From Cercospora beticola (lineage: Eukaryota; Ascomycota; Dothideomycetes; Mycosphaerellales; Mycosphaerellaceae), in the NCBI RefSeq assembly GCF_033473495.1, contig NC_088943.1, forward strand, positions 600,001 to 664,000: 64,000 bases of DNA. The letters run 5' to 3'. Position 1 is the stretch's first letter. Each line of letters starts with the position of its first letter. The translations under genes and the position numbers were made by a program. A model generated the notes under the pieces. The model saw only the letters and a program-made list of their open reading frames with translations, had not been told where the DNA came from and made no database searches. Shown one piece after another: positions 17,714 through 35,753 of the stretch.

Positions 17714-18817
17714 ATGGTCAACCCTACAGAGGAGAAAGGCTCAAAAGCCCGCATCCCAATCACCATCTTGACAGGCTTCACGGGCTGCGGCAAAACAACT
17801 CTGATCCTCAACCTGATACCGCAACTACGAAAGCAGAACTCAGGCTACAAGCTCGCACTCATCAAGAACGAAATCGGAGATGTCGCAGTGGACTCTCAAC
17901 TCGCGCAATCGGCCGAAATGGCTGCAACGCAAGAACTCCTGGGCGAATGCATTTGCTGCGTAAATGTTGGCCAGATAGGGTCCGCACTGGAAGAACTGGA
18001 CTCCAAGAATAATCCCGATAGAATCATCATCGAAACTTCAGGATCTGCTGAGCCGCTGAAGCTGGTCTTGGAGATCAAACGCTTGTCCGATGTGACAGGC
18101 AGGTACGAACTTGATGGCATTATCTCTGTCATTGATGCCGAGAACTGGGGCGGGTACGCTTCGAAGTCATTCACTGCGAAGCTCCAGGCGAAACAGACTG
18201 ATCTCATCGTGATTAACAAATGGGAGGGCTTGTCAGAGCGAGATTACGACCTCTTCTTGGACAAGCTTGGTGATCTCGATGTTGATACGCCTCAAGTCAA
18301 GAGTGACAAAGGATGGGTGGAGAAGGATCTTCTATTTGGCTTTGACCAGAAGCTGGCTCGGAATTGGCTGGACGCAGGGGAGCATCATGACCACGACCAC
18401 GATCACGAGGACGGGGAAAAGCACACCAGTGAAGTCGAATGCCTGAGCGTCACCTTGAAATCACCCGCCGCTGATGCAGTAGTCGATCTGCAGAAGCTGG
18501 AGGCATTGCTCAAGGCGGCACCGAAAGACGAGGTTTATCGCATCAAAGGCGTGGTGTACAGCAGCTCATCACCCAAGAACGGAGATGGCAGAGAAATCAA
18601 CCCTGGAGCCAATGGCAGATCACGATACATCTTGAACTGGTCATTCGGACGCTGGACTTGGTATCACGTGGAAGATGACACATCTGAATCGCCAATCGCG
18701 CGCATCAGCATTTTCACAGCACCTTACGAGAGCACGAAGTGGAGCAAGAAAGCGCACGAGTTTGTGAAAGTCGCAGAAGGCGCTCAAGAAGAGCTCGAGG
18801 TGAAGAGAGTGCAATGA
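17714..18817 (+). CDS. COG0523 (CobW/Zng1-like) metallochaperone GTPase
   Basis: A single exon of 367 residues. Walker A is GFTGCGKTT (residues 21-29). The metal-binding CICC motif follows in GECICCVN (79-82). DRIIIETSGSAEP is the Walker B/ETSG region and LIVINKWE corresponds to the NKxD guanine-specificity motif. A His/Asp-rich segment (EHHDHDHDHEDGEKH, about 224-238) is typical of zinc-handling members, and a CobW_C domain follows (YRIKGVVY...RYILNWSFGRWTW). The family moves metal, zinc in Zng1, to client metalloenzymes using GTP. Its stop lies only 30 bp from the convergent UstYa-type gene, but nothing in the sequence ties it to that pathway. Confidence 0.9.
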   Translation: MVNPTEEKGSKARIPITILTGFTGCGKTTLILNLIPQLRKQNSGYKLALIKNEIGDVAVDSQLAQSAEMAATQELLGECICCVNVGQIGSALEELDSKNNPDRIIIETSGSAEPLKLVLEIKRLSDVTGRYELDGIISVIDAENWGGYASKSFTAKLQAKQTDLIVINKWEGLSERDYDLFLDKLGDLDVDTPQVKSDKGWVEKDLLFGFDQKLARNWLDAGEHHDHDHDHEDGEKHTSEVECLSVTLKSPAADAVVDLQKLEALLKAAPKDEVYRIKGVVYSSSSPKNGDGREINPGANGRSRYILNWSFGRWTWYHVEDDTSESPIARISIFTAPYESTKWSKKAHEFVKVAEGAQEELEVKRVQ

Positions 18818-18847: not shown

Positions 18848-19954
18848 TCAGGCCAATCCATCGCCAGGCTTATGCTTATGCACCGTCTCTTCCCCTCCGA
18901 GCCGCACAACGCCCACTTGCGGACCTGTCTGCTGCCCATACGGCGTGCCGAACTCTGGATGTGTCAACAGTCCTTCCGCAAAAGGCTCGAACGATCGAGA
19001 TCGCCACCAGCTGTTCATCTTATCCCAATTCACACACTGATGCGGATAATCCAGTTGTGCGGTCGGCATCGAAGCTGTCTTCGGCCAATACATGATCATC
19101 GGCGTTAGGTCAGGCTGACACTCCATCGTCTGTTTGAGATAGGACAAGCAGTGCACTAAGTGGCGTTAGCACGAGCATTTCCAAGTCCAGGACACTCGAC
19201 CTACTGCTGTGCATTTGCAATCGATTTTCCTCGTCAGCTGTCAGCTCCGGAAAGTACCGGTCTTTCCACAAAGACTTGTAGATGTAATGCTGCGATTTCG
19301 ACAGTCAGCACTCACGGCCTTTGCAAACCGTCTTTTTGCCCGCTTACCAAGCAATGGAGGTTGTGGTATATGGTATTGGAGCCATAATAAGTGCCGTTGG
19401 GCAAAATTGTTGATCTCTCACTGGCTCCGCCGAATCTGTCGACCTCATTCTTGCTGTAGAGCACATTCATGGCTGCCGCAACAGTCAACACATTACTTGA
19501 GGTGCGAAAAGTAAGTTCTGCTTACGGATGAGTAGATCCTTCCATGCTGTTCGCAGGCCATCATAATGTTCCATCGGAAAATACTTCTTGTCCCAGCCAT
19601 CTTGGAGAACGAAGTACTTATCTTCGTACTCGATGGCTTCGCGAGCTGGAGCTGTAACGCAGAACACCATGATCAGCCTATGCTCCATCAAGCTCCCAAC
19701 GAAGGACTCTTACTGTATACAATGTTTGGCCCGTGAATGTAGCGCTGTTCCAGCAACTTCGATATGAGAAGCAAGAAGACAAGGTTCGCTGTTGCGAGTG
19801 CAAGATATGGTACTATTCTTCTGAGCAAACTCGGTCGTTCTCTGGAGGGCAATGCTGTCGGTCTCCATTCTTGGTCAATGAACGGCACCTTCTCTTCACT
19901 CTGCTGCCCTTGAAGTGTGCTCTCCGAAGCGTCGCTGGAAGTTCTTGTGCTCAT
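18848..19954 (-). CDS. UstYa-family (DUF3328) oxidase-like protein, copy 1
   Basis: Five exons (19954-19714, 19651-19526, 19472-19348, 19289-19205, 19155-18848) encode 294 residues; four 49-62 nt introns all have GT-AG ends. A short cytosolic N-terminus is followed by one membrane segment (IVPYLALATANLVFLLLISKL), typical of UstYa type II membrane proteins. The family landmarks follow: IVYTPAREAIEYEDKYF, AWKDLL, the first HxxHC motif as HNLHCL, a second as HSMHCLSYLKQ created by the last splice, then ECQPDLTP and HQCVNWDKMNSWW. Splicing is needed to make both HxxHC motifs. In ustiloxin, asperipin and cyclochlorotine pathways UstYa-type proteins catalyse oxidative crosslinking or other oxidation of peptides. 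It is transcribed away from the repeat precursor, with 776 bp between starts. Confidence 0.9.
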
Positions 19955-20730
19955 AGTGGACGATAGTGCCTTTCGGAAGCTCTGCTGCGTAGGAGCGTGT
20001 CTTTCGCAGATGGACAGAAAAATTTGAACGCTGGAGATCAGGACCACAGAAGGCATACTGCGGAACAGTTGCACAGCTCCAAAAGATCGTCCAACTCGAG
20101 ATCTGCAGTTCTAGCGAGCTCATGCAGGGTCGCAAGAAGCACACATCGCTCTAGTATAGACCCACAGCTGCGTGAGTTCAAGCTATGCTAGGCTCTGCAT
20201 AAGGCTCGCTAACTTCGCGCTAGCTTCATTTTCGCACATGCTCAAGGATCGCCCTTTTGATTGGCTACGTTCCCATACGTCTATGCTACATATCAAATGG
20301 TTGCTGGACTTCCTTCGAGCACGCCAACAGCTTCATGACAAGATCTGCGACTTGCATTCGCACCAGTTTGCTCCAAGCGATACCCGACGACTTCGGAACT
20401 CCGAGGATGCTCGCTGGACAGGTAGATCAGCACAGAATGAAGAAGGAGCCAAGCCAACATCGACAACGTAGCATCACATCAATTGCTGAGAACAATCAAT
20501 TCCAAGACCTGACGTTACAACGATCGACCATCGCTGCTCGCCTCTTCTCGCTCAGTGCTGCCCGAAGAGGATTGGAGCGATGAGGCTCGCTTCGACTCAT
20601 GCAGCAGCAAGTAGCAGACTCTCCATGAGTCTGAAGAACCGCCGTTGGTGACGATATATGAAGCCCTTGCTCCCATGTGGTAGAGCTCAAAATCTGCCAA
20701 ACTCCAAAACAATTGTCCAAGCAAGCAACC
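19955..20730. promoter_or_regulatory. Divergent promoter region of UstYa-1 and the repeat precursor
   Basis: This 776-bp region separates the starts of the oxidase-like gene and the precursor and could co-regulate them. I could not identify a specific transcription-factor site. Frames crossing it are short and lack coding character. Confidence 0.55.
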
Positions 20731-21484
20731 ATGCAGCTCGTTACATCCGCTCTCGTCGCCGCCCTTGTGGCTGGCAATGCATTTGCTGCCCCCATCAATG
20801 GTATGTCACGCTGAGCTCCAAGACATAGCTTCAAGACTGACAGCGCAATCAGAGAAGCGTCAGGTTGCGCCAGAGGTGCCGTACGAGGTCGGCTTGACAT
20901 ACGGCGATGTAATCTCCCTCCCCGAAAGACATCTTCGCGCCTCCAACTGACCGGGTCTAGTACGGACGAGAGAGTGCTGCGAAGGCTGAGAAGCGCCAGT
21001 TCCAGGACGAGGTCCCATATGAAGTCGGCTTGACCTACGCAGACTACGGCCGCGAAGGCGCTGCAAAGGCTGATAAGCGTCAGGTAAACTTCATCAATTG
21101 CAATCCACCCACTTATATCCTACTAACAATCATCTCCAGCTCTCCCCAGAAGTCCCATACGAAGTCGGCCTCACATACGGAGATTATGGTCGCGAGAGCG
21201 CTGCCAAGGCCGAGAAGCGCCAGTTCCAGGAAGAGGTCCCATATGAAGTCGGCCTCACATACGCTGACTACGGAAGAGAGGGTGCCGCAAAGGCCGAAAA
21301 GCGCCAATTCCAAGACGAAGTCCCCTACGAAGTCGGCTTGACCTATGCTGACTACGGTCGCGAGGGTGCTACCAAGGTCGAGAAGCGCCAGCACGCCCCA
21401 GAAGTTCCCTACGAAGTCGGCCTCACATATGCTGACTACGGTCGTGAAGGCCGCGAGAGCGGCGTGACGACTCTCAACAACTAG
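20731..21484 (+). CDS. Secreted multi-repeat RiPP precursor with Kex2 sites
   Basis: Four exons (20731-20800, 20853-20908, 20961-21083, 21140-21484) encode 197 residues. The first about 20 residues (MQLVTSALVAALVAGNAFA) are a signal peptide, followed by APINEKR. Six tandem repeats follow, five of exactly 28 residues ending in Lys-Arg and a final one ending GVTTLNN. Every repeat holds EVPYEVGLTY(A/G)DYGRE, with three invariant Tyr and no Cys or Trp. Kex2 cleavage after each KR would release about 26-28-residue peptides. This is the layout of dikaritin precursors (UstA type), and DUF3328 genes flank it on both sides. The product structure cannot be read from sequence; the invariant block is the likely core. 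The introns are 52, 52 and 56 nt; intron 2 splits repeat 1 and intron 3 falls right after KRQ of repeat 2. Without splicing only fragments of the repeat frame remain open. Confidence 0.88.
20861..21481 (+). repeat. Six tandem precursor repeats (84-bp coding unit)
   Basis: The coding unit is 84 nt once introns are removed. Repeats 1 and 3 share P before the core and GDYGRES; repeats 2 and 4 share FQ(D/E)E and ADYGREG. The array therefore looks as though a two-repeat block was duplicated (1-2 to 3-4), with repeat 5 resembling 2 and 4. Repeat 6 keeps the core but loses the KR end. Confidence 0.9.
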
Positions 21485-21928
21485 ACGACGTTCGATGATT
21501 CGGTGGAAAAGCATGTTTGGTGAAACTTGGGGGCGACGAGACATCATAGTGCAAACAAGAATGTACATACCATTGATGAACACGACTTTACGACAGTGTC
21601 TTTGATACACTGCACTGCACTGCACTCACAAAACGTGAAGAAGCTCCAATCACCTGAAAGCGGTCCGTGCCTTAGCCACATGCTGCGCATGCAATGCAGC
21701 TTCGCTTGAAGCTTGCGGATCGTCGTGTAGATCACATTGCGAGCTTTACGAAGCTCTGTCGTCGGGGGATTTTGATTTGAAACGACCCGAATTGCAGAAT
21801 GTTGCAATTCGAGCACAAGTGGAATTTGTGAACGCTCTCAATGCCGTTTGAGATCGTGACAACTTTGGGGGCTGTGAAATTAGAGACTCAAAGTATGCAT
21901 TCCAATCAACTTCATCAAAAGTAATAAC
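21485..21928. other. Convergent intergenic region precursor/UstYa-2
   Basis: This is 3' flank of the precursor and of the second oxidase-like gene. CACTGCACTGCACTGCACT at about 21609 is a short direct repeat. No gene is evident. Confidence 0.5.
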
Positions 21929-22916
21929 CTAAGGCGGCACACTCCACACCTTCTCATCCTCTTGTCTATGCAGATAGTTTCGATCCCAGTCTTTTCCGAC
22001 TCTCCTACTATCCGCGAATTCCATGATGCTATCCCAATTCCGACACGAGTGCCAATTGTTGAAATTGGGATAAGGTCGTGGGTTATCTTCCACATATCTG
22101 AATGTCACAATGCCGACATCTGCGTTGCACATGAGGACTTGTCGTAGCATGTCGATGCAGTGCCCAAAGTGTTCTTTTTGTAGGTCGAGAGGATCGGAGA
22201 AGTGTCCGGTGGAATTGTAGTAGTCGTAGTTCCAGATGTTGGTTTTACGGAGCATGTTCTGCGATTTGAGGTGTTAGGGAATGGGTAGTTGGGGGCAGGT
22301 AGAGATGGAGAAGGGGCTTACCACGCAATGTAGCTGGTGGAAGACTTCTAGAGAGCCGACGTATGAGTCTGGGATGCCGGCTTCTGGTGGCATGCGGATC
22401 GAGTCGAGATGGCCGGGTATTTGCGCGAGCTCGTCGCCGGTGATGTATGTTAGGTTGACTGTCCAGAAGTGTTAGCATGTGCCTTTGCAAGCTACAAGTA
22501 TCCGTTCTTACAATTCATCAAATCATGCCACGCTGCGTCGATGGAAGGATGTGGTTCTCCTCTGTAAGGCGAGTCCTCCGAGATCGTGCCATTGAAGAGG
22601 ACGTTGTGGTATGAGGTATCGATCGAGGAGATCGCGGGAGCTGTGACATGTCAGGACTTGTTGAACGATATTGGTGGACGCGCAACATACAGTATACGCT
22701 ATGTCTTCGAAAGCATTCTGAGTCCTGTATCCGCGAGGCGAGGAAGTAGCCAGCCACCATTGACACAGCTGAGGAGAGCAGACATAGTATCAGGCATGTC
22801 GTAGCGGAAATTGTATTTGAGGCCGTGACCCGTGAAGGCCAGTGTTGGGAATCTGAGACTTCCCAAGATCCCTTCTCTTCGACGATAGGTAGTTGTTGAT
22901 ATGCTTGAGAAGACAT
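21929..22916 (-). CDS. UstYa-family (DUF3328) oxidase-like protein, copy 2
   Basis: Four exons (22916-22691, 22640-22512, 22458-22322, 22258-21929) encode 273 residues, with GT-AG introns of 50, 53 and 63 nt. The start MSSQAYQQLPIVEEKG leads into one membrane segment (TCLILCLLSSAVSMVAGYFLA). Family landmarks: VYSPAISSIDTSYHNVLFNG, SPYRGEPHPSIDAAWHDLM, first motif FHQLHCVNMLRK, second motif EHFGHCIDMLRQVLMCNADVG, then NFNNWHSCRNWDSIMEFA. Both HxxHC motifs are intact. It is clearly a different paralogue from copy 1: beyond the shared landmark motifs little sequence is in common, so the two may catalyse different steps. Ustiloxin-type pathways often have two UstY proteins acting together. It is convergent with the precursor gene. 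Confidence 0.9.
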
Positions 22917-24159
22917 CGCTCTGGCGTGCCTGTGGTGCAGTGCGTTTGCTGACCAGAAAATTGCTCGCGGCAGGCAAGAGAAAGGAGCAAGAGCAACCCT
23001 CGCCGACCTCACTGAGGGAGGCTTAACAGAGGCTGATCGTCCCAGGGCATTGAGAGATCCCTGCTCAGGCTGGCAACTGCTTCTCTCGCCCGCAGGTCAT
23101 CGCCCTGATCAGCGCAGCGTGCTACTCAAGCGAGGCACAAGTCTTGCAGCTGTTGCAAGTGCGCGAATTTCTGCAGATGCTCGTGAAGGAGCGCAGATCT
23201 CACGGACAGTAATATGCAATGAAGTGCACTAGTTGAAGGTCAGAGAGCTCTTCATGTTGGCCTATGGCGAGGCGCAATAAGCGAAGGCTAGAGATGTGCC
23301 AAGATCACTTGTGCATAGCGCCATGTAGCTTGAAACCTAGCTGATGCGCACATGGCCTTCTCACAGCACTACAATGTTTCTTGGACTTTAATGACGGAAC
23401 CTCACATGCAATGAACACGGGCCCTAGCTTGAAAGACTGAGCTATCGCTGCGTTGACGATCTGCAACTTTGACAGATCTGCTACTTTCGCGAGCTCACGA
23501 AGCGGCCAAGAGAGCAGATGAGGAAGGTAGCATTTGGTTGAAATGGCCATGACGATCCATTTCATGCACACAACGACGGCCTTGAAGATTCGTGCACAAG
23601 GCCACGCTGCGGATCCCATTATCGAAAGAGGGAAGCAAGATGGCGGACGTTTTTGAGACGCGGCGAGGATTCGCTGGAGGAGGGAGGGCTGACCGTCCTT
23701 GTACGTGTGACGCCTCAGAGGACGCGCATCCGCGTTTCACCATACCTCTCACGATCGGGAGGGTTTGGTAGCATTGATCGGGTATCAGAGTGTGCTGTAC
23801 AGTGGCACGTCTCTCGGCAGGTCCATGGTATACTTGTTGAGGCAGTGGGATTTCTGAGCGCTACACGATCGGGGATTGCTGGGAGATGAATCCAGGCGTC
23901 CGCAAGCCCATTCTAAATCGGGAGAGAAATTGATGTGGGTGATGTGTGGTGATATGTGTGTGTTTAGAGGGAGGAAGTGCTGACGTCGGGACGAAGTGGC
24001 GTTCATGTGAAGAAGGCGCAAATATAAACTGCTGGGACGAAGTCTTGGCTGAAATTCGCGTGAGCCCCACCAGCGAGACACGACAGCGACGGTCCAGGCG
24101 ACAAACGTACGACGACACCCAATCCGCACATCCTCCTCATCGCGAGACAGATAGACACG
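22917..24159. other. Intergenic region with no recognised gene
   Basis: About 1.2 kb separates the RiPP locus from eIF3m. Frames here are short and overlap on both strands without family motifs. It includes the eIF3m promoter and 5' leader. Confidence 0.5.
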
Positions 24160-25476
24160 ATGCCGGGCTTCCCCAAGCTCAGCCTCGTCGAGGGCGCATT
24201 CGAGGAGCTCGCGCTCGAGCTCGCGACATACCTGGACAACGCAAAGGGCGACGACGGCACCACAGTCACAGAAATCACTCCTCTCCTCGCCAACCCGGAA
24301 AAGCCAGAGAGCAAGACGGATCGCGATGCCGTGCTCAAGAAGATCGTGACGGCCTCCTCGATTCTCAACGGCGCACCTGAGAGAGAACTGCAGGCGGCAT
24401 ACAATCTGCTCATCCACCTCGTGTCGCACGCCGAAGACCCAGATCCATACCTCAACCGCATCTGCCAGTATCTGTCACAGCCGTTGACTTCATCACCTCA
24501 AAACGGCGGCGGTATTGCCCTCGGGATATTGAGCACACTCTTCAACCAAGTCCAGCCGGATGACGAGACGAGGTTCCACGTTCTCTTGGCCATCATCAGC
24601 GTGATCAAGAACACGGGCAACTTCGACACTCTCGCACCGCAGTTGAAGAATGTGGACAGCTGGGTGGAGGAATGGGAATTGGAGGCGCCTGAGGCGCGGA
24701 AATTGTACTTGGCCATCGCAGACGCTGCGACGACCGCAAAAGAGACCGAGGAGGCATACCACTACCTGCTGAAGGGCCTGAACACAATCCAGACAGATGC
24801 CGCGACGCCAGAGGCTCGGGAGCTGTCAGTACGCGCGCTTAAGCTTGCGCTGCAGAAGGAGAAGCACTTCGACTTCCAGGACCTGACCGCACTGGACAGT
24901 ATCCAGGCGCTCCGAAAGTCCGACGAGACACTTTTCGAGCTGCTCGAACTGTTCAGCACCGAGAACTTCGACGACCTCCAAGACTTCAAGGAGGGCAACG
25001 GTTCTTTCCTCCAAGAGCAGAACATAAACGAGGACATTCTCGACAAGAAAATGCGCCTCCTCACACTCGCCTCCCTCTCCGCAGCAGCCCACCAATCCCG
25101 CACCCTTCCCTACGCACAAATCGCCAAAGCCCTTCAAATCCCCTCAGAAGACGTCGAATCCTGGGTAATCGACAGCATCCGCTCAGGGCTCGTTGAGGGC
25201 AAACTCTCCCAGCAAAAGCAAGAATTCCTCATCCACCGCAGCACATACCGCGTCTTTGGCGACAGCCAATGGAGAGAAGTCGCAGCCCGACTAGACGTCT
25301 GGCGAAACAGCCTGCAGAACGTCCTGGCTGTCATCCGGCAACAAAAGGAAGAGTTCGTCAAGGAGAAGGAAGCGGAGTTGCAGAATACAAACAACAACGG
25401 CGAGAGGAGAGGATACAGACCCAACAGGGGCGAGCGTAATGAACGCCGAGAGCCGCAAGCCATCGAGGTCGAGTAG
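24160..25476 (+). CDS. Eukaryotic translation initiation factor 3 subunit M
   Basis: A single exon of 438 residues starts MPGFPKLSLVEGAFEELALEL. Helical repeats run through the N-terminal half (AAYNLLIHLV, RFHVLLAIISVIKNTGNFDTL). The C-terminal PCI domain has LDKKMRLLTLASLSAAAHQSR, LPYAQIAKALQI, VESWVIDSIRSGLVEGKLSQ and the RVFGDSQWREVAARLDVWRNSL segment typical of eIF3m. The tail is Arg/Asn-rich. eIF3m is part of the octameric PCI/MPN core of eIF3 that binds the 40S subunit. The length fits fungal eIF3m. The gene ends immediately before a 1.9-kb gene-free stretch. Confidence 0.93.
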   Translation: MPGFPKLSLVEGAFEELALELATYLDNAKGDDGTTVTEITPLLANPEKPESKTDRDAVLKKIVTASSILNGAPERELQAAYNLLIHLVSHAEDPDPYLNRICQYLSQPLTSSPQNGGGIALGILSTLFNQVQPDDETRFHVLLAIISVIKNTGNFDTLAPQLKNVDSWVEEWELEAPEARKLYLAIADAATTAKETEEAYHYLLKGLNTIQTDAATPEARELSVRALKLALQKEKHFDFQDLTALDSIQALRKSDETLFELLELFSTENFDDLQDFKEGNGSFLQEQNINEDILDKKMRLLTLASLSAAAHQSRTLPYAQIAKALQIPSEDVESWVIDSIRSGLVEGKLSQQKQEFLIHRSTYRVFGDSQWREVAARLDVWRNSLQNVLAVIRQQKEEFVKEKEAELQNTNNNGERRGYRPNRGERNERREPQAIEVE

Positions 25477-27344: not shown

Positions 27345-29486
<2,142 letters not shown>

Positions 29487-31571: not shown

Positions 31572-33053
31572 TCAAGTACCTCTCTCAAACCTCAACCCCC
31601 TCCTCAAATCCCCAAACATCATCACGAACCAATCCCTCATATAATTGTCCTTCACCGTCCACGGCGCTGTCGAGCTCGCTTTCGGATACGTCTTATTCTG
31701 TAAATACGTACTCGACATATTCCACAGCGGCTTCGTCTCCAATTTACTTTCTTCCTCTTTCGTCAACGTCGGAACGAATGAGGTCGCTCTCTGCCGTTCC
31801 ATCTCTTTTACATTTTTCAAGAAGATTCTCACAGCGAGATCGCTGCCTAATGTCCAGGAATTATTCCAGTAGCCGATTACGAGCATCAAATTGGGGACGG
31901 ACTGGAGCATTGTGCCGCGCCACATGTATTGTTCTCCAATCTCAATCTTGCGATCTTTATCAATCCTCACTTCTGCGCCTCCGAGCATTTGAAGTTTGAG
32001 GCCTGTAGCTGTGACAATGACGTCTGCTTGGAGTTTTTCTCCCGAGGTCAAAAGGATGCCATCTTCTTCCACAGCCTCAATTTTCCCAGTCACGACTCTC
32101 GCCTTCCCATCATCCATCGCTCGAAAAAAATCCCCATCGGGACAAACACAAAGTCTCTGATCCCAAACCTTATACTTCGGCTTAAAATCCGGATCATATT
32201 TCATTCCATCAGGTAACTCCTTCGTCGTAGCTTTCTCCAAAGCTTTCCTCGCTGCGTTGGGGAAGAATTGACTGAAATAGAAGAACAACCAGGCGAGGAT
32301 GGTGAAGCGCCAGGCGATGATTCTGTAGCCGAGATGGCCGGGGAAGAGGCGACGGATCCAGGTGTCCAAGGTGCTGTGCATGGACATGCTCATGATGTAG
32401 GTTGGGCTGCGTTGGAGCATGGTTGTGTGGGAGGCTTTTTTTGCGACGATGGGGAGGATTGTGATTGCGGTTGCACCGCTGCCAATGATGACGACTTTCT
32501 TGTTCGTGTAGTCTAGATCTTCGGGCCAGAATTGAGGGTGTGCGATGGCGCCTTTGAACTTCTCTAATCCAGGAATCGTCGTTGCTCGGGGATTGTTGTA
32601 GTCGAAGAAGCCTGTGCCGCCGATGATGAAGTGGGCTTGGAGGACTTTCTTCTCGCCATTGACGGTGACATCGAGACTCCAGAGCTGTCGTTTCGAACTC
32701 CAGTCCATGCTGAGAACATCGTGGTTATATCGTATGTGCTTGTCGATACCTCGCTCCTTTGCAGATTCATCGACATACTTGGCAATGCCGGGACCATCTG
32801 CAATCGGGCTGCTCTTGGACCACGGCCGCCAAGCAAAACCCATGGTGTAGAGATCCGAGTCTGATCGAATGCCCGGATACTTGAAGAAAGCCCATGTTCC
32901 ACCAATTTCTCCTCGACGGTCCAGAATGACATATGTTTCGTTTGGGAACTGCTGTTCTATTCTGTACGCTGCGTTGATTCCTGTGATGCCAGCACCGATG
33001 ATCACAAAGTCGAAGGATTCTGGGCTGGGCGCTGTCGATGTAAGTTTCTCCAT
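31572..33053 (-). CDS. FAD-dependent Baeyer-Villiger-type monooxygenase
   Basis: A single exon of 493 residues. An N-terminal FAD-binding Rossmann motif GAGITG (residues 20-25) is followed by GEIGGTWAFFKYPGIRSDSDL. The Baeyer-Villiger fingerprint FxGxxxHxxxW(P/D) is present as FKGAIAHPQFWPED, then a second NADPH-type Rossmann motif IIGSGATA. VIVTATG marks the third conserved block. The short membrane-like segment IIAWRFTILAWLFFYFSQFF is seen in EthA-like members. The enzyme would insert oxygen into ketones using NADPH and O2; the substrate is not predictable. It ends about 100 bp from the convergent NTF2-like gene and is divergent from nothing biosynthetic, so it is not obviously part of the RiPP locus about 9 kb away, though ustiloxin pathways do use flavin monooxygenases of another type. 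Confidence 0.9.
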   Translation of the reverse strand: MEKLTSTAPSPESFDFVIIGAGITGINAAYRIEQQFPNETYVILDRRGEIGGTWAFFKYPGIRSDSDLYTMGFAWRPWSKSSPIADGPGIAKYVDESAKERGIDKHIRYNHDVLSMDWSSKRQLWSLDVTVNGEKKVLQAHFIIGGTGFFDYNNPRATTIPGLEKFKGAIAHPQFWPEDLDYTNKKVVIIGSGATAITILPIVAKKASHTTMLQRSPTYIMSMSMHSTLDTWIRRLFPGHLGYRIIAWRFTILAWLFFYFSQFFPNAARKALEKATTKELPDGMKYDPDFKPKYKVWDQRLCVCPDGDFFRAMDDGKARVVTGKIEAVEEDGILLTSGEKLQADVIVTATGLKLQMLGGAEVRIDKDRKIEIGEQYMWRGTMLQSVPNLMLVIGYWNNSWTLGSDLAVRIFLKNVKEMERQRATSFVPTLTKEEESKLETKPLWNMSSTYLQNKTYPKASSTAPWTVKDNYMRDWFVMMFGDLRRGLRFERGT

Positions 33054-33254: not shown

Positions 33255-35753
33255 TCACCTTCTGATATCCTGTATCGCCTGCCGACGATGTATGCTTTCG
33301 GCAAATAGTGCCTCGATGAGACCGACGACCTCCTCAGCAGTGTACTCCATGCTCAACTCGCTCTCCTTCCACATGTACTTGATGTCTGCAAGACTGCTTT
33401 CCATGATCTCAGCCATGTATTGGAACTTCAGCCAATTTGGACAATAGACGAAAGTCATGTCGCGGTCGTTCTGCACAAACAAGTCCTTGGCCGTCGAGGC
33501 CTGGTCGATCAAAATCTTGAGCTGTTTGGAGTCCGCCTCGCCAATGTCCGGCAGGTCTTCAATTTCACGAATCATCTTCTGCGCGATCGATGACAAGAGG
33601 CTGCCAACACTCTGCAACAGAGCAGAGGTAGACAGGATCGGTGACCACAATCGATGGACATCTCGTAAGCGGAGGACTGCCTGTTCGACAGCGTCTTCGC
33701 ACTCTTGTTTAGCAGGTTGCTCCGAGCAGGCACTGAAACCTTGTGCTCCGTCCAGCAGGTCTGACAGAATCGTGCGCTGCGACTCCATCTCGGAACTATA
33801 AGCTCTTTTCGCGAACTGCTCCAGAGACTTTACGTCGCCATCCACGCGAAGTCGTGACGCAGGTGGTTGATCAGCTTGCCAAGCCCGAAGCTGAGCCGCG
33901 AGGTGAAGGGCATCGTTGTAGATCAGCATGTTTCCCACGTCTATTTTGGCATATGCTGTAGGTGCCGTCGCACGGTATATCGCCAGCCCCAGAGTAGGCA
34001 GGCTGTAGAGTCCGGCAGCAGCAGCAGCGAAAGGCGATTCACTTCCTGCAAGGGATTGAGCATCGCTGATAATCTGCTTGAGCAACTCAAGAGTGCCGTC
34101 AGGTATGCCGGTGACTGTGAATGTTTCGCGCAGAGTCATCTCGCGATCCGCCACTTTTGAGGATGTGTTCACTCCGTTGGGCCCAGTCGATGCTTTTGCT
34201 TGAGGTGCGCCTGATGCAGGTTGCTCATCCTCACCATCCCAGCCCCAGGCTTCCCCTTCATCATCACCGGCTTCACCAGATGGTGGCTGAGCAGTAGTGT
34301 CGGGCTCGTCCCAAGCGCTCATATCTTCATCTTCTGGCTGCGAGGCTGACGCCCCCGCGTTCGAAGGCTGCGTGGGCACGTCGACATCTTCGTCCCAAGC
34401 ACTCATGTCCTCGTCATCAGCCTGCTTTGGCGGAGCTGCAGTCGTTGGCGAGCCGACGCTCCCTTCTTGCTCGCCCCACGCGTCCCATTCGTCGTCCGCA
34501 CCATCCGCGCCCCCCAGCGCCGCGTGATCCTCTTTGCTGATGGTTTGCGTCTCAACCCTTTCCACAGTCTTTCGTTCTCGAAGACCGGAAAACACCAGGT
34601 TGCGCACGTCACCAAGTATAGCTTCACGCCGTTTGGTCAGCCATGTCTTTGGCGCGGACTGGACCCATTCGCGCAAGGACTTGCTACCGTGCCAGCCTAA
34701 TTGGTCGATCTGATCTGCAAACCCTGATGTCCTCTCGAGAAGTGTCTCGAAGCCTGGTAGATCTTCAATGTCGACTGGTACGGCTGCTTCGAGCCAGTCC
34801 TCTTCCAAACGAACATTGATTCGAGGCACTATAATTTCTGCCAGCGGCGAAACGATGTCCTGCTCCAGATGTTGTGCAAGAAAGTTGAATGATGACTGCA
34901 GGTCTTCGAACAATGCTTCCACGCTCGTGTCATCACCTTTCCCGTTGCAAGTCAGCTGCGTGCCATCAATGGCAAAGATGAAGACCTGTCCATCTCTGGC
35001 AGGCGCGAGTCGTGGACGAAAGACCGCTTTTTCAACATCCTTCGCGAGTTTCCCAACGAGATCGTCAAATACGCCCAGTCCTCGAGCGGCGTTGATGACT
35101 GAGCCCAGGCCGTTGCTGATCACCACTCGTCGCTCTTCGATGCTGACTGACACACCATCGCTCCAGCGCTCGTGCACAGTTGTTCTCAGATTCTCGTTGA
35201 GTCTCTCGATCCTTCTCCTGAGCATATGTCCAACGCCAGATCGAGCTTCACCAAGATCATTGACGGAAACCTCTTCCTCCGCCTCTTGCAAACGAGCCAA
35301 GCCCGCATCGACTTCACCGCTTACCAGAGCATCTTGCACAGAGTCCAACAAGACTTTGACCCGCTTTATTGCTTGCAGTTTCGCAGCGATCGAGCTGTAG
35401 ACGTTCGTCTCATGTTGCAGTTCCGTGAAGTATTGGCCAGCTTCCTTGACCTTCGTCGCAAAACTCTTAGTCTGCTCGTGCTGCGCTACAATTTGTCGTG
35501 CAGTCTCGCGACTACGCAGAATATCCGCCTGAAGCTCTTTGGCTTTTGCTATCCAGGTATCGACGTCGCCAGCCGTAGATTGACTCAGGCCACGTATTTC
35601 ATTCTGAACTTCTTCCTGCTCTTTGCGCAGCGCTGCACCGATGTGTCCCAATTTGTCGGAGCTCAAGTCTGCCGAAGCTATGTCCTCGTCCTGCGGGAAA
35701 TTGCCATGTTCGATGTAGTCCAGTACGGCTGGCGTGAGAGCATCTACGGCCAT
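33255..35753 (-). CDS. ZW10/Dsl1-family tethering protein
   Basis: A single exon of 832 residues starts MAVDALTPAVLDYIEHGNFP. A long helical N-terminal half (DLSSDKLGHIGAALRKEQEEVQNEIRGL; ETNVYSSIAAKLQAIKRV) resembles ZW10. A central acidic disordered insert has three DEDMSAWDE-like or GEAWGWDGE motifs (about residues 420-520). The C-terminal half (LRETFTVTGIPDGTLELLKQI; LPTLGLAIYRATAPTAYAK; GNMLIYNDALHLAAQL; VYCPNWLKFQYMAEIMESSLADIKYMW) is diagnostic of ZW10/Dsl1. ZW10 is shared by the NRZ/Dsl1 tether for Golgi-to-ER vesicles and, in some lineages, the kinetochore RZZ complex. The tryptophan-containing acidic motifs recall the Dsl1 acidic loop that binds coatomer; this link is inference. Confidence 0.9.
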   Translation of the reverse strand: MAVDALTPAVLDYIEHGNFPQDEDIASADLSSDKLGHIGAALRKEQEEVQNEIRGLSQSTAGDVDTWIAKAKELQADILRSRETARQIVAQHEQTKSFATKVKEAGQYFTELQHETNVYSSIAAKLQAIKRVKVLLDSVQDALVSGEVDAGLARLQEAEEEVSVNDLGEARSGVGHMLRRRIERLNENLRTTVHERWSDGVSVSIEERRVVISNGLGSVINAARGLGVFDDLVGKLAKDVEKAVFRPRLAPARDGQVFIFAIDGTQLTCNGKGDDTSVEALFEDLQSSFNFLAQHLEQDIVSPLAEIIVPRINVRLEEDWLEAAVPVDIEDLPGFETLLERTSGFADQIDQLGWHGSKSLREWVQSAPKTWLTKRREAILGDVRNLVFSGLRERKTVERVETQTISKEDHAALGGADGADDEWDAWGEQEGSVGSPTTAAPPKQADDEDMSAWDEDVDVPTQPSNAGASASQPEDEDMSAWDEPDTTAQPPSGEAGDDEGEAWGWDGEDEQPASGAPQAKASTGPNGVNTSSKVADREMTLRETFTVTGIPDGTLELLKQIISDAQSLAGSESPFAAAAAGLYSLPTLGLAIYRATAPTAYAKIDVGNMLIYNDALHLAAQLRAWQADQPPASRLRVDGDVKSLEQFAKRAYSSEMESQRTILSDLLDGAQGFSACSEQPAKQECEDAVEQAVLRLRDVHRLWSPILSTSALLQSVGSLLSSIAQKMIREIEDLPDIGEADSKQLKILIDQASTAKDLFVQNDRDMTFVYCPNWLKFQYMAEIMESSLADIKYMWKESELSMEYTAEEVVGLIEALFAESIHRRQAIQDIRR

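What the first reader, a model, noticed from the sequence alone, without database searches (positions are those of the whole stretch)
18848..22916. Compact UstYa-type RiPP locus: repeat precursor between two DUF3328 genes
Seen: a secreted precursor with six Kex2-separated repeats lies between two distinct genes, each with a membrane segment and two HxxHC motifs once spliced (HNLHC/HSMHC; HQLHC/HFGHC). Known: this combination defines dikaritin pathways (ustiloxin, phomopsin, asperipin-2a, epichloecyclins). Inference: this locus makes a Tyr-containing modified peptide. The invariant block EVPYEVGLTY(A/G)DYGRE is not one I know from described compounds. No tyrosinase, methyltransferase, peptidase or transporter is adjacent, so the cluster is minimal or its other enzymes are elsewhere. 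Flanking genes are housekeeping.
Basis: partly seen in the sequence, partly recalled or inferred. Interest (0 to 1): 0.93.

Follow-up and report, generated by a model that had tools for sequence, protein, structure and literature searches.

The report
Fungal modified-peptide gene cluster, Cercospora
A leaf-spot fungus carries a three-gene cluster that most likely makes a secreted, chemically cross-linked peptide of a known class (dikaritin-type RiPPs) with an unfamiliar core; it is a good new example of a known kind rather than a new kind of system.

Summary
Between window 18848 and 22916 lie three spliced genes: a UstYa/DUF3328 gene (294 aa, minus strand), a secreted-looking 197-aa precursor with six units each starting KRQ (plus strand), and a second, distantly related UstYa gene (273 aa, minus strand). 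Both UstYa proteins score far over the Pfam cut-off and carry two HxxHC motifs. The repeats differ widely at synonymous sites (pS 0.73) but hardly in the 16-aa core EVPYEVGLTY(A/G)DYGRE (pN 0.04), so the core is under strong purifying selection. The organism is a Cercospora; C. kikuchii has both UstYa orthologs on one contig, two locus-tag steps apart. The core has no match elsewhere in this genome nor in the papers searched. Nearest neighbours are a CobW GTPase and eIF3m; no tyrosinase match is on this contig. Best reading: a minimal dikaritin-type RiPP cluster in which UstYa oxidases cross-link tyrosines of Kex2-released peptides. Such clusters are common (22% of 7878 fungal KEP genes), and this genome holds several more. 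Product, cross-link and function are unproven.

The parts
18848..19954 (-). UstYa-family gene A (294 aa; exons 19954-19714, 19651-19526, 19472-19348, 19289-19205, 19155-18848); HNLHC and HSMHC motifs
   Evidence: model; PF11807, E 1.7e-36; ortholog P0027 in C. kikuchii, 95% over 100%
20731..21484 (+). Precursor gene, 197 aa: signal-peptide-like N-terminus and six KRQ-headed units; introns 20801-20852, 20909-20960, 21084-21139
20855..20990 (+). Repeat unit 1: KRQVAPEVPYEVGLTYGDYGRESAAKAE (contains intron 20909-20960)
20991..21074 (+). Repeat unit 2: KRQFQDEVPYEVGLTYADYGREGAAKAD
21075..21214 (+). Repeat unit 3: KRQLSPEVPYEVGLTYGDYGRESAAKAE (contains intron 21084-21139)
21215..21298 (+). Repeat unit 4: KRQFQEEVPYEVGLTYADYGREGAAKAE
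21299..21382 (+). Repeat unit 5: KRQFQDEVPYEVGLTYADYGREGATKVE
21383..21481 (+). Repeat unit 6 (last, no KR after it): KRQHAPEVPYEVGLTYADYGREGRESGVTTLNN
21929..22916 (-). UstYa-family gene B (273 aa; exons 22916-22691, 22640-22512, 22458-22322, 22258-21929); HQLHC and HFGHC motifs
   Evidence: model; PF11807, E 3.2e-52; ortholog P0001 in C. kikuchii, 98% over 81%
19955..20730 (.). 776-bp divergent promoter region shared by gene A and the precursor
   Evidence: gene coordinates

Best explanation
A minimal dikaritin-type RiPP cluster. Shown here: a precursor with a hydrophobic signal-like N-terminus and six KR-headed units with a strongly constrained 16-residue core, flanked on both sides by two distinct UstYa-family genes, each with a hydrophobic N-terminal segment and two HxxHC motifs. 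Inferred from the family: the precursor enters the ER, a Kex2-type protease cuts after each KR in the Golgi, carboxypeptidase trimming removes the KR, the UstYa proteins oxidise the peptide (most likely an ether or C-C cross-link from one or more of the three invariant tyrosines), and the product is secreted. Because neither a peptidase nor a tyrosinase gene was found next to it, the product is probably either a long peptide (up to about 26 residues) or is trimmed by enzymes encoded elsewhere.
For: PF11807 hits of both proteins; in an alignment of 20 sequences (the two window proteins and 18 of the 27 found) nine columns are invariant, among them every H and C of both HxxHC motifs; in alignments of 26 of the 27 found proteins the second H of the first motif is nearly invariant, the others invariant; the predicted structure of the C. 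kikuchii gene-B ortholog (mean pLDDT 79.6) puts the motifs on two long helices, 104-121 and 136-156; repeat constraint pS 0.728 against pN 0.038; both UstYa orthologs on one C. kikuchii contig with tags 001282800 and 001283000, leaving one tag step between them; one Kex2-type P-domain match in the genome; published enrichment of DUF3328 genes near KEP genes, highest at the next position, and of Tyr in the repeats of DUF3328-linked KEPs (65.6% against 38.2%; PMC7329392, section 7).
Against: No expression or mass data. The precursor had no hit in the protein search (7995 candidates scored, none at E <= 0.01), so its conservation outside this genome is not shown, and the C. kikuchii gene between the two UstYa tags was not seen. 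No tyrosinase, which ustiloxin and phomopsin need, matches on contig C9 (25 exon-level matches in the genome, a lower bound, none on C9). UstYa-family proteins also do other chemistry (hydroxylation and chlorination in cyclochlorotine; PMC12048977, passage), and the UniRef name of the gene-A ortholog refers to cyclochlorotine biosynthesis.
Confidence: 0.8

Rival explanations
1. The precursor is an unmodified Kex2-processed peptide (hormone, pheromone or effector) and the UstYa genes act on something else.
For: 6120 of 7878 KEP genes have no DUF3328 gene among their 15 nearest genes (PMC7329392, section 7); a weak, below-cut-off MF_alpha_N match at the N-terminus (18.7 bits, cut-off 22); the units hold no YxI, the motif of the ustiloxin/phomopsin type (units; motif from PMC7329392, passages).
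Against: UstYa genes on both immediate sides, with only about one UstYa region per Mb of this genome (63 exon matches, which I grouped into 34 regions of 36 Mb); both kept close together in C. kikuchii; pheromone-type KEP genes, with three exceptions, lack DUF3328 neighbours (PMC7329392, abstract).
Confidence: 0.13
2. A structural or surface protein with repeats (repellent-like) in which KR sites are incidental.
For: Repeats of constant length are also found in surface proteins (general knowledge; not tested in any call).
Against: KR stands at the same place in 6 of 6 units and constraint is strongest on the core (pN 0.038 against 0.286 in KRQxxx and 0.132 in the tail of units 1-5); two UstYa neighbours.
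Confidence: 0.03
3. A decayed or silent cluster.
For: No expression data; this genome holds another repeat array with an in-frame stop in each unit (L030).
Against: No internal stop in any of the three spliced frames; silent changes dominate between repeats in the core; UstYa proteins 95-98% identical to C. kikuchii.
Confidence: 0.04

Closest known systems
Ustiloxin / phomopsin clusters (dikaritins)
   Same: Kex2 repeat precursor with Tyr in each unit; at least two UstYa-family proteins (2 for ustiloxin, 5 for phomopsin). YEVG in this core resembles the ustiloxin YAIG/YVIG and phomopsin YVIP cores (PMC7329392, passages) in Tyr first, a beta-branched residue third and, for ustiloxins, Gly fourth.
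   Different: No YxI in the six units; no tyrosinase match on this contig; no methyltransferase, peptidase or transporter among the 10 window ORFs scanned; a conserved block of 16 residues rather than a 4-residue core.
Asperipin-2a cluster
   Same: Small cluster, no tyrosinase needed (recalled); cross-links from internal tyrosines (PMC9233826, passages); four genes sufficed in A. oryzae (PMC10512285, passages).
   Different: One DUF3328 gene there (PMC7329392, section 7), two here; the core FYYTGY (recalled) is unrelated.
Epichloecyclin (gigA) and victorin
   Same: Multicore Kex2-type precursors of plant-associated fungi, counted among dikaritins with UstYa homologs (PMC9233826, PMC10512285 and PMC12048977, passages).
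   Different: Different cores and linkages (Tyr-Ile in epichloecyclins, which are nonapeptides; Phe-Leu in victorin, which is also chlorinated).
Other UstYa/repeat loci of the same genome
   Same: Of 25 of the 33 other UstYa regions, 6 carry KR-linked peptide repeats, for example five DVAKPDYQYLV units at L016 and three QYIG(V/T)PYAYYNNYKDA units at L018; L026 looks doubtful. The best paralog match of gene B, 41% identity over about 100 residues, lies in the L018 region.
   Different: Unrelated cores; units 2-5 of this precursor match nowhere else in the genome at E <= 1. Gene A has no close paralog (the other matches are 24-34% identical, apart from one stretch of about 60 residues at 42%).

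Membership tests
KEP (Kex2-processed repeat protein) | At least 3 tandem repeats of 8 aa or more between Kex2 sites (criterion of PMC7329392, section 13) | tested here: met
   Five units of 28 aa bounded by KR on both sides and a sixth, last unit
KEP (Kex2-processed repeat protein) | N-terminal signal peptide | tested here: inconclusive
   Hydrophobic N-terminus MQLVTSALVAALVAGNAFA, best mean hydropathy 2.41 over 10 residues; no signal-peptide predictor available
Dikaritin (broad definition) | DUF3328/UstYa protein(s) with two HxxHC motifs encoded beside the precursor | tested here: met
   PF11807 E 1.7e-36 and 3.2e-52; motifs in both models, conserved in homologs
Dikaritin (broad definition) | Product is an oxidatively cyclised core peptide | not testable with these tools
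   Needs mass spectrometry
Dikaritin (original five-gene definition, as told in PMC12048977, passage) | Tyrosinase in the cluster | tested here: not met
   25 exon-level PF00264 matches in the genome, none on contig C9 (only the best candidates are scored)
Dikaritin (original five-gene definition, as told in PMC12048977, passage) | Methyltransferase and transporter or peptidase in the cluster | tested here: inconclusive
   None among 10 window ORFs scanned with Pfam, 3 of which matched nothing; other ORFs were not scanned
Ustiloxin/phomopsin type (YxI core) | YxI in each repeat | tested here: not met
   Units hold YEVG and TY(A/G)DYG; no YxI in any of six units
Alpha-pheromone precursor | MF_alpha domain over the Pfam cut-off | tested here: not met
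   MF_alpha_N 18.7 bits, cut-off 22

The most novel reading that the evidence does not exclude
Two UstYa oxidases act without a tyrosinase on an unusually long core: all of EVPYEVGLTY(A/G)DYGRE, with three invariant tyrosines, is kept under strong selection, so the product could be a 16-26-residue multiply cross-linked peptide (for example Tyr to Val beta-carbon in YEVG, plus a second link at TY(A/G)DY), N-terminally pyroglutamylated and made in two isoforms (G...S and A...G units), larger than the 4-residue and 9-residue cores described in the passages seen.
Probability: 0.25. Interest if true: 0.6.

Novelty: new member of a known kind. Interest (0 to 1): 0.37.

Why it matters
By 2022 only five dikaritins had been reported although at least 838 KEP types are predicted (PMC10512285, passages). 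A three-gene locus with a sharply defined, invariant core in a crop-pathogen genus is a tractable place to learn what a UstYa pair does without a tyrosinase nearby, and gives exact masses to look for. It is a candidate secreted metabolite of Cercospora, but its role (toxin, signal, antimicrobial) is unknown.

Tried and rejected
A shared promoter element: AGATCTGC-N7-GCGAGCTCA stands at 20099 and 23474, upstream of the cluster genes, and nowhere else in the genome without mismatch (one further place with one mismatch). AGATCTGC itself is denser in the window (10 in 64 kb) than in 20 other loci (8 in 198 kb). But the local alignment of the two regions scores 39 against shuffles of mean 30.4, sd 3.4, maximum 47, and other stretches of the window also reach 39; shared 10-mers are no more than in random pairs (2 against a mean of 2.9). 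Not claimed.

Repeat scan: with a looser limit L025 and L031 gave two or three repeated 5-mers; under the limit of five used for the count they drop out. Five of the 25 regions were fetched only as stretches of about 4.9 kb, so a precursor further away would be missed there.

Literature: the core string and four shorter pieces gave 0 papers; the C. kikuchii tags gave 0. Supplementary tables were not opened, since the session allows no look-ups there, so the precursor may be listed in one. Searches were seen as listings and named nothing on this locus. Papers opened: PMC7329392 (abstract, sections 7 and 13, part 1 of section 6, passages), and passages only of PMC6339444, PMC9632046, PMC8496228, PMC9233826, PMC10512285, PMC12048977. 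None was read whole.
Full report
What is there. The window lies at C9:600001-664000 of a 36.07-Mb, 10-contig genome. The best protein relatives are from Cercospora kikuchii at 95-98%, and the genome size differs from the published C. kikuchii MAFF 305040 assembly (34.44 Mb, 9 contigs; PMC8496228, passages), so this is a Cercospora, probably another species or isolate (inference).

Three genes fill 18848-22916. Gene A (minus) and the precursor (plus) are divergent over a 776-bp region; gene B (minus) converges on the precursor. Models from splice junctions: gene A 294 aa in five exons; precursor 197 aa in four exons; gene B 273 aa in four exons. The gene-A model matches a C. kikuchii protein of the same length over its whole length, including HSMHC against HNMHC across the last intron. 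The C. kikuchii model of gene B starts inside the hydrophobic segment (P0001); the ATG at 22916 gives an N-terminal tail plus the whole segment.

The precursor. Units: KRQ-x-x-x-EVPYEVGLTY-(A/G)-DYGRE, then in units 1-5 (S/G)-A-(A/T)-K-(A/V)-(E/D). Units 1 and 3 are of one kind (P before the core, G in it, S after), units 2, 4 and 5 of another (FQD or FQE, A, G), unit 6 is mixed. Summed over all 15 pairs of units, the 16-aa core has pS 0.728 and pN 0.038; KRQxxx has pS 0.544 and pN 0.286; the 20 residues from Q to the end of the core have pS 0.712 and pN 0.119; the tails of units 1-5 have pS 0.614 and pN 0.132. So the units are old copies, and selection holds the core most. The pairs are not independent, so these are descriptive figures.

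The enzymes. Both are UstYa family (PF11807) and about 23% identical to each other over 229 residues. In alignments of 20 and 26 sequences the H and C of the HxxHC motifs, a Tyr, a later Cys and an Asp are invariant or nearly so. In the model of the gene-B ortholog the motifs sit on two long helices (104-121 and 136-156); a shared metal site is a reasonable inference, but the distance between the motifs was not measured.

Surroundings. Left: a CobW-type GTPase (17714-18817), 30 bp from gene A, tail to tail. Right: eIF3m (24160-25476), a DEAD-box helicase (ORF 27863-29281), a small protein with a signal-like N-terminus read by eye from two ORFs (about 30.8-31.5 kb, not scanned), an FMO-like monooxygenase (31572-33053) and ZW10 (33255-35753). 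Two housekeeping genes separate the FMO from the cluster. Tyrosinase matches number 25 in the genome at exon level, none on C9. One Kex2-type P-domain match is on C4.

How common. The KEP survey found a DUF3328 gene among the 15 nearest genes for 1758 of 7878 KEP genes, most often at the next position (PMC7329392, section 7). Venturia inaequalis has nine such clusters (PMC9632046, passage). In this genome PF11807 gave 63 exon matches, which I grouped by eye into 34 regions with this one; of the 33 others I could fetch 25, and 6 of 25 carry KR-linked peptide repeats by the scan, against 0 of 100 shuffles and 1 of the 6 other 9.9-kb pieces of the window. One of the six (L026) looks like a simple repeat, and one (L030) has a stop in each of four units. 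Published antiSMASH output for C. kikuchii lists one fungal-RiPP cluster (PMC8496228, passage); whether it is this one is not known.

Conservation. Units 2-5 match nowhere else in the genome at E <= 1. Both UstYa orthologs lie on a 2,357,730-bp contig of C. kikuchii with tags 001282800 and 001283000, the contig_00009 of the paper, so one tag step falls between them where the precursor would be. The protein search did not return it; it may be modelled differently or lacking. This is the main gap.

Verdict. The cluster is a minimal dikaritin-type locus with a core not found in the papers searched. That makes it a new member of a known kind. What could lift it is the long invariant core with three tyrosines and two UstYa enzymes but no tyrosinase found nearby; that needs mass spectrometry.

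Noticed in passing
window 20099-20122 and 23474-23497: AGATCTGC-N7-GCGAGCTCA in the upstream regions of the cluster; these are its only exact copies in the genome, but the similarity of the regions is within shuffles.
   Followed up: partly
L030 5600-6300 (C6, about 1286.1-1286.8 kb): Repeat array of a KEP-like peptide with an in-frame stop at the same place in each of four units, about 1 kb from a UstYa match; looks like a decayed precursor.
   Followed up: no
L016 2802-4001 (C9, about 89.8-91.0 kb): Another repeat precursor, five DVAKPDYQYLV units, near a UstYa match on the opposite strand.
   Followed up: partly
L018 8900-9901 (C8, about 1146.4-1147.4 kb): Three Tyr-rich units QYIG(V/T)PYAYYNNYKDA with KR between them, at a locus with several UstYa matches.
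   Followed up: partly
L020 1802-2901 (C3, about 400.3-401.4 kb): Six FLGRTW-containing units, four headed by KREAEP (Ste13-like EA after KR, as recalled for alpha-pheromone precursors), one with an in-frame stop; a UstYa match with stops begins about 1.4 kb further on.
   Followed up: no
window 17714-18817: CobW-family GTPase with a His/Asp-rich stretch ends 30 bp from gene A; a metal-handling protein next to a presumed metalloenzyme gene, perhaps by chance.
   Followed up: no
window, about 250-2010: Repeated peptide words on the minus strand (GVLGG, GCWVG and the like), probably a minisatellite.
   Followed up: no
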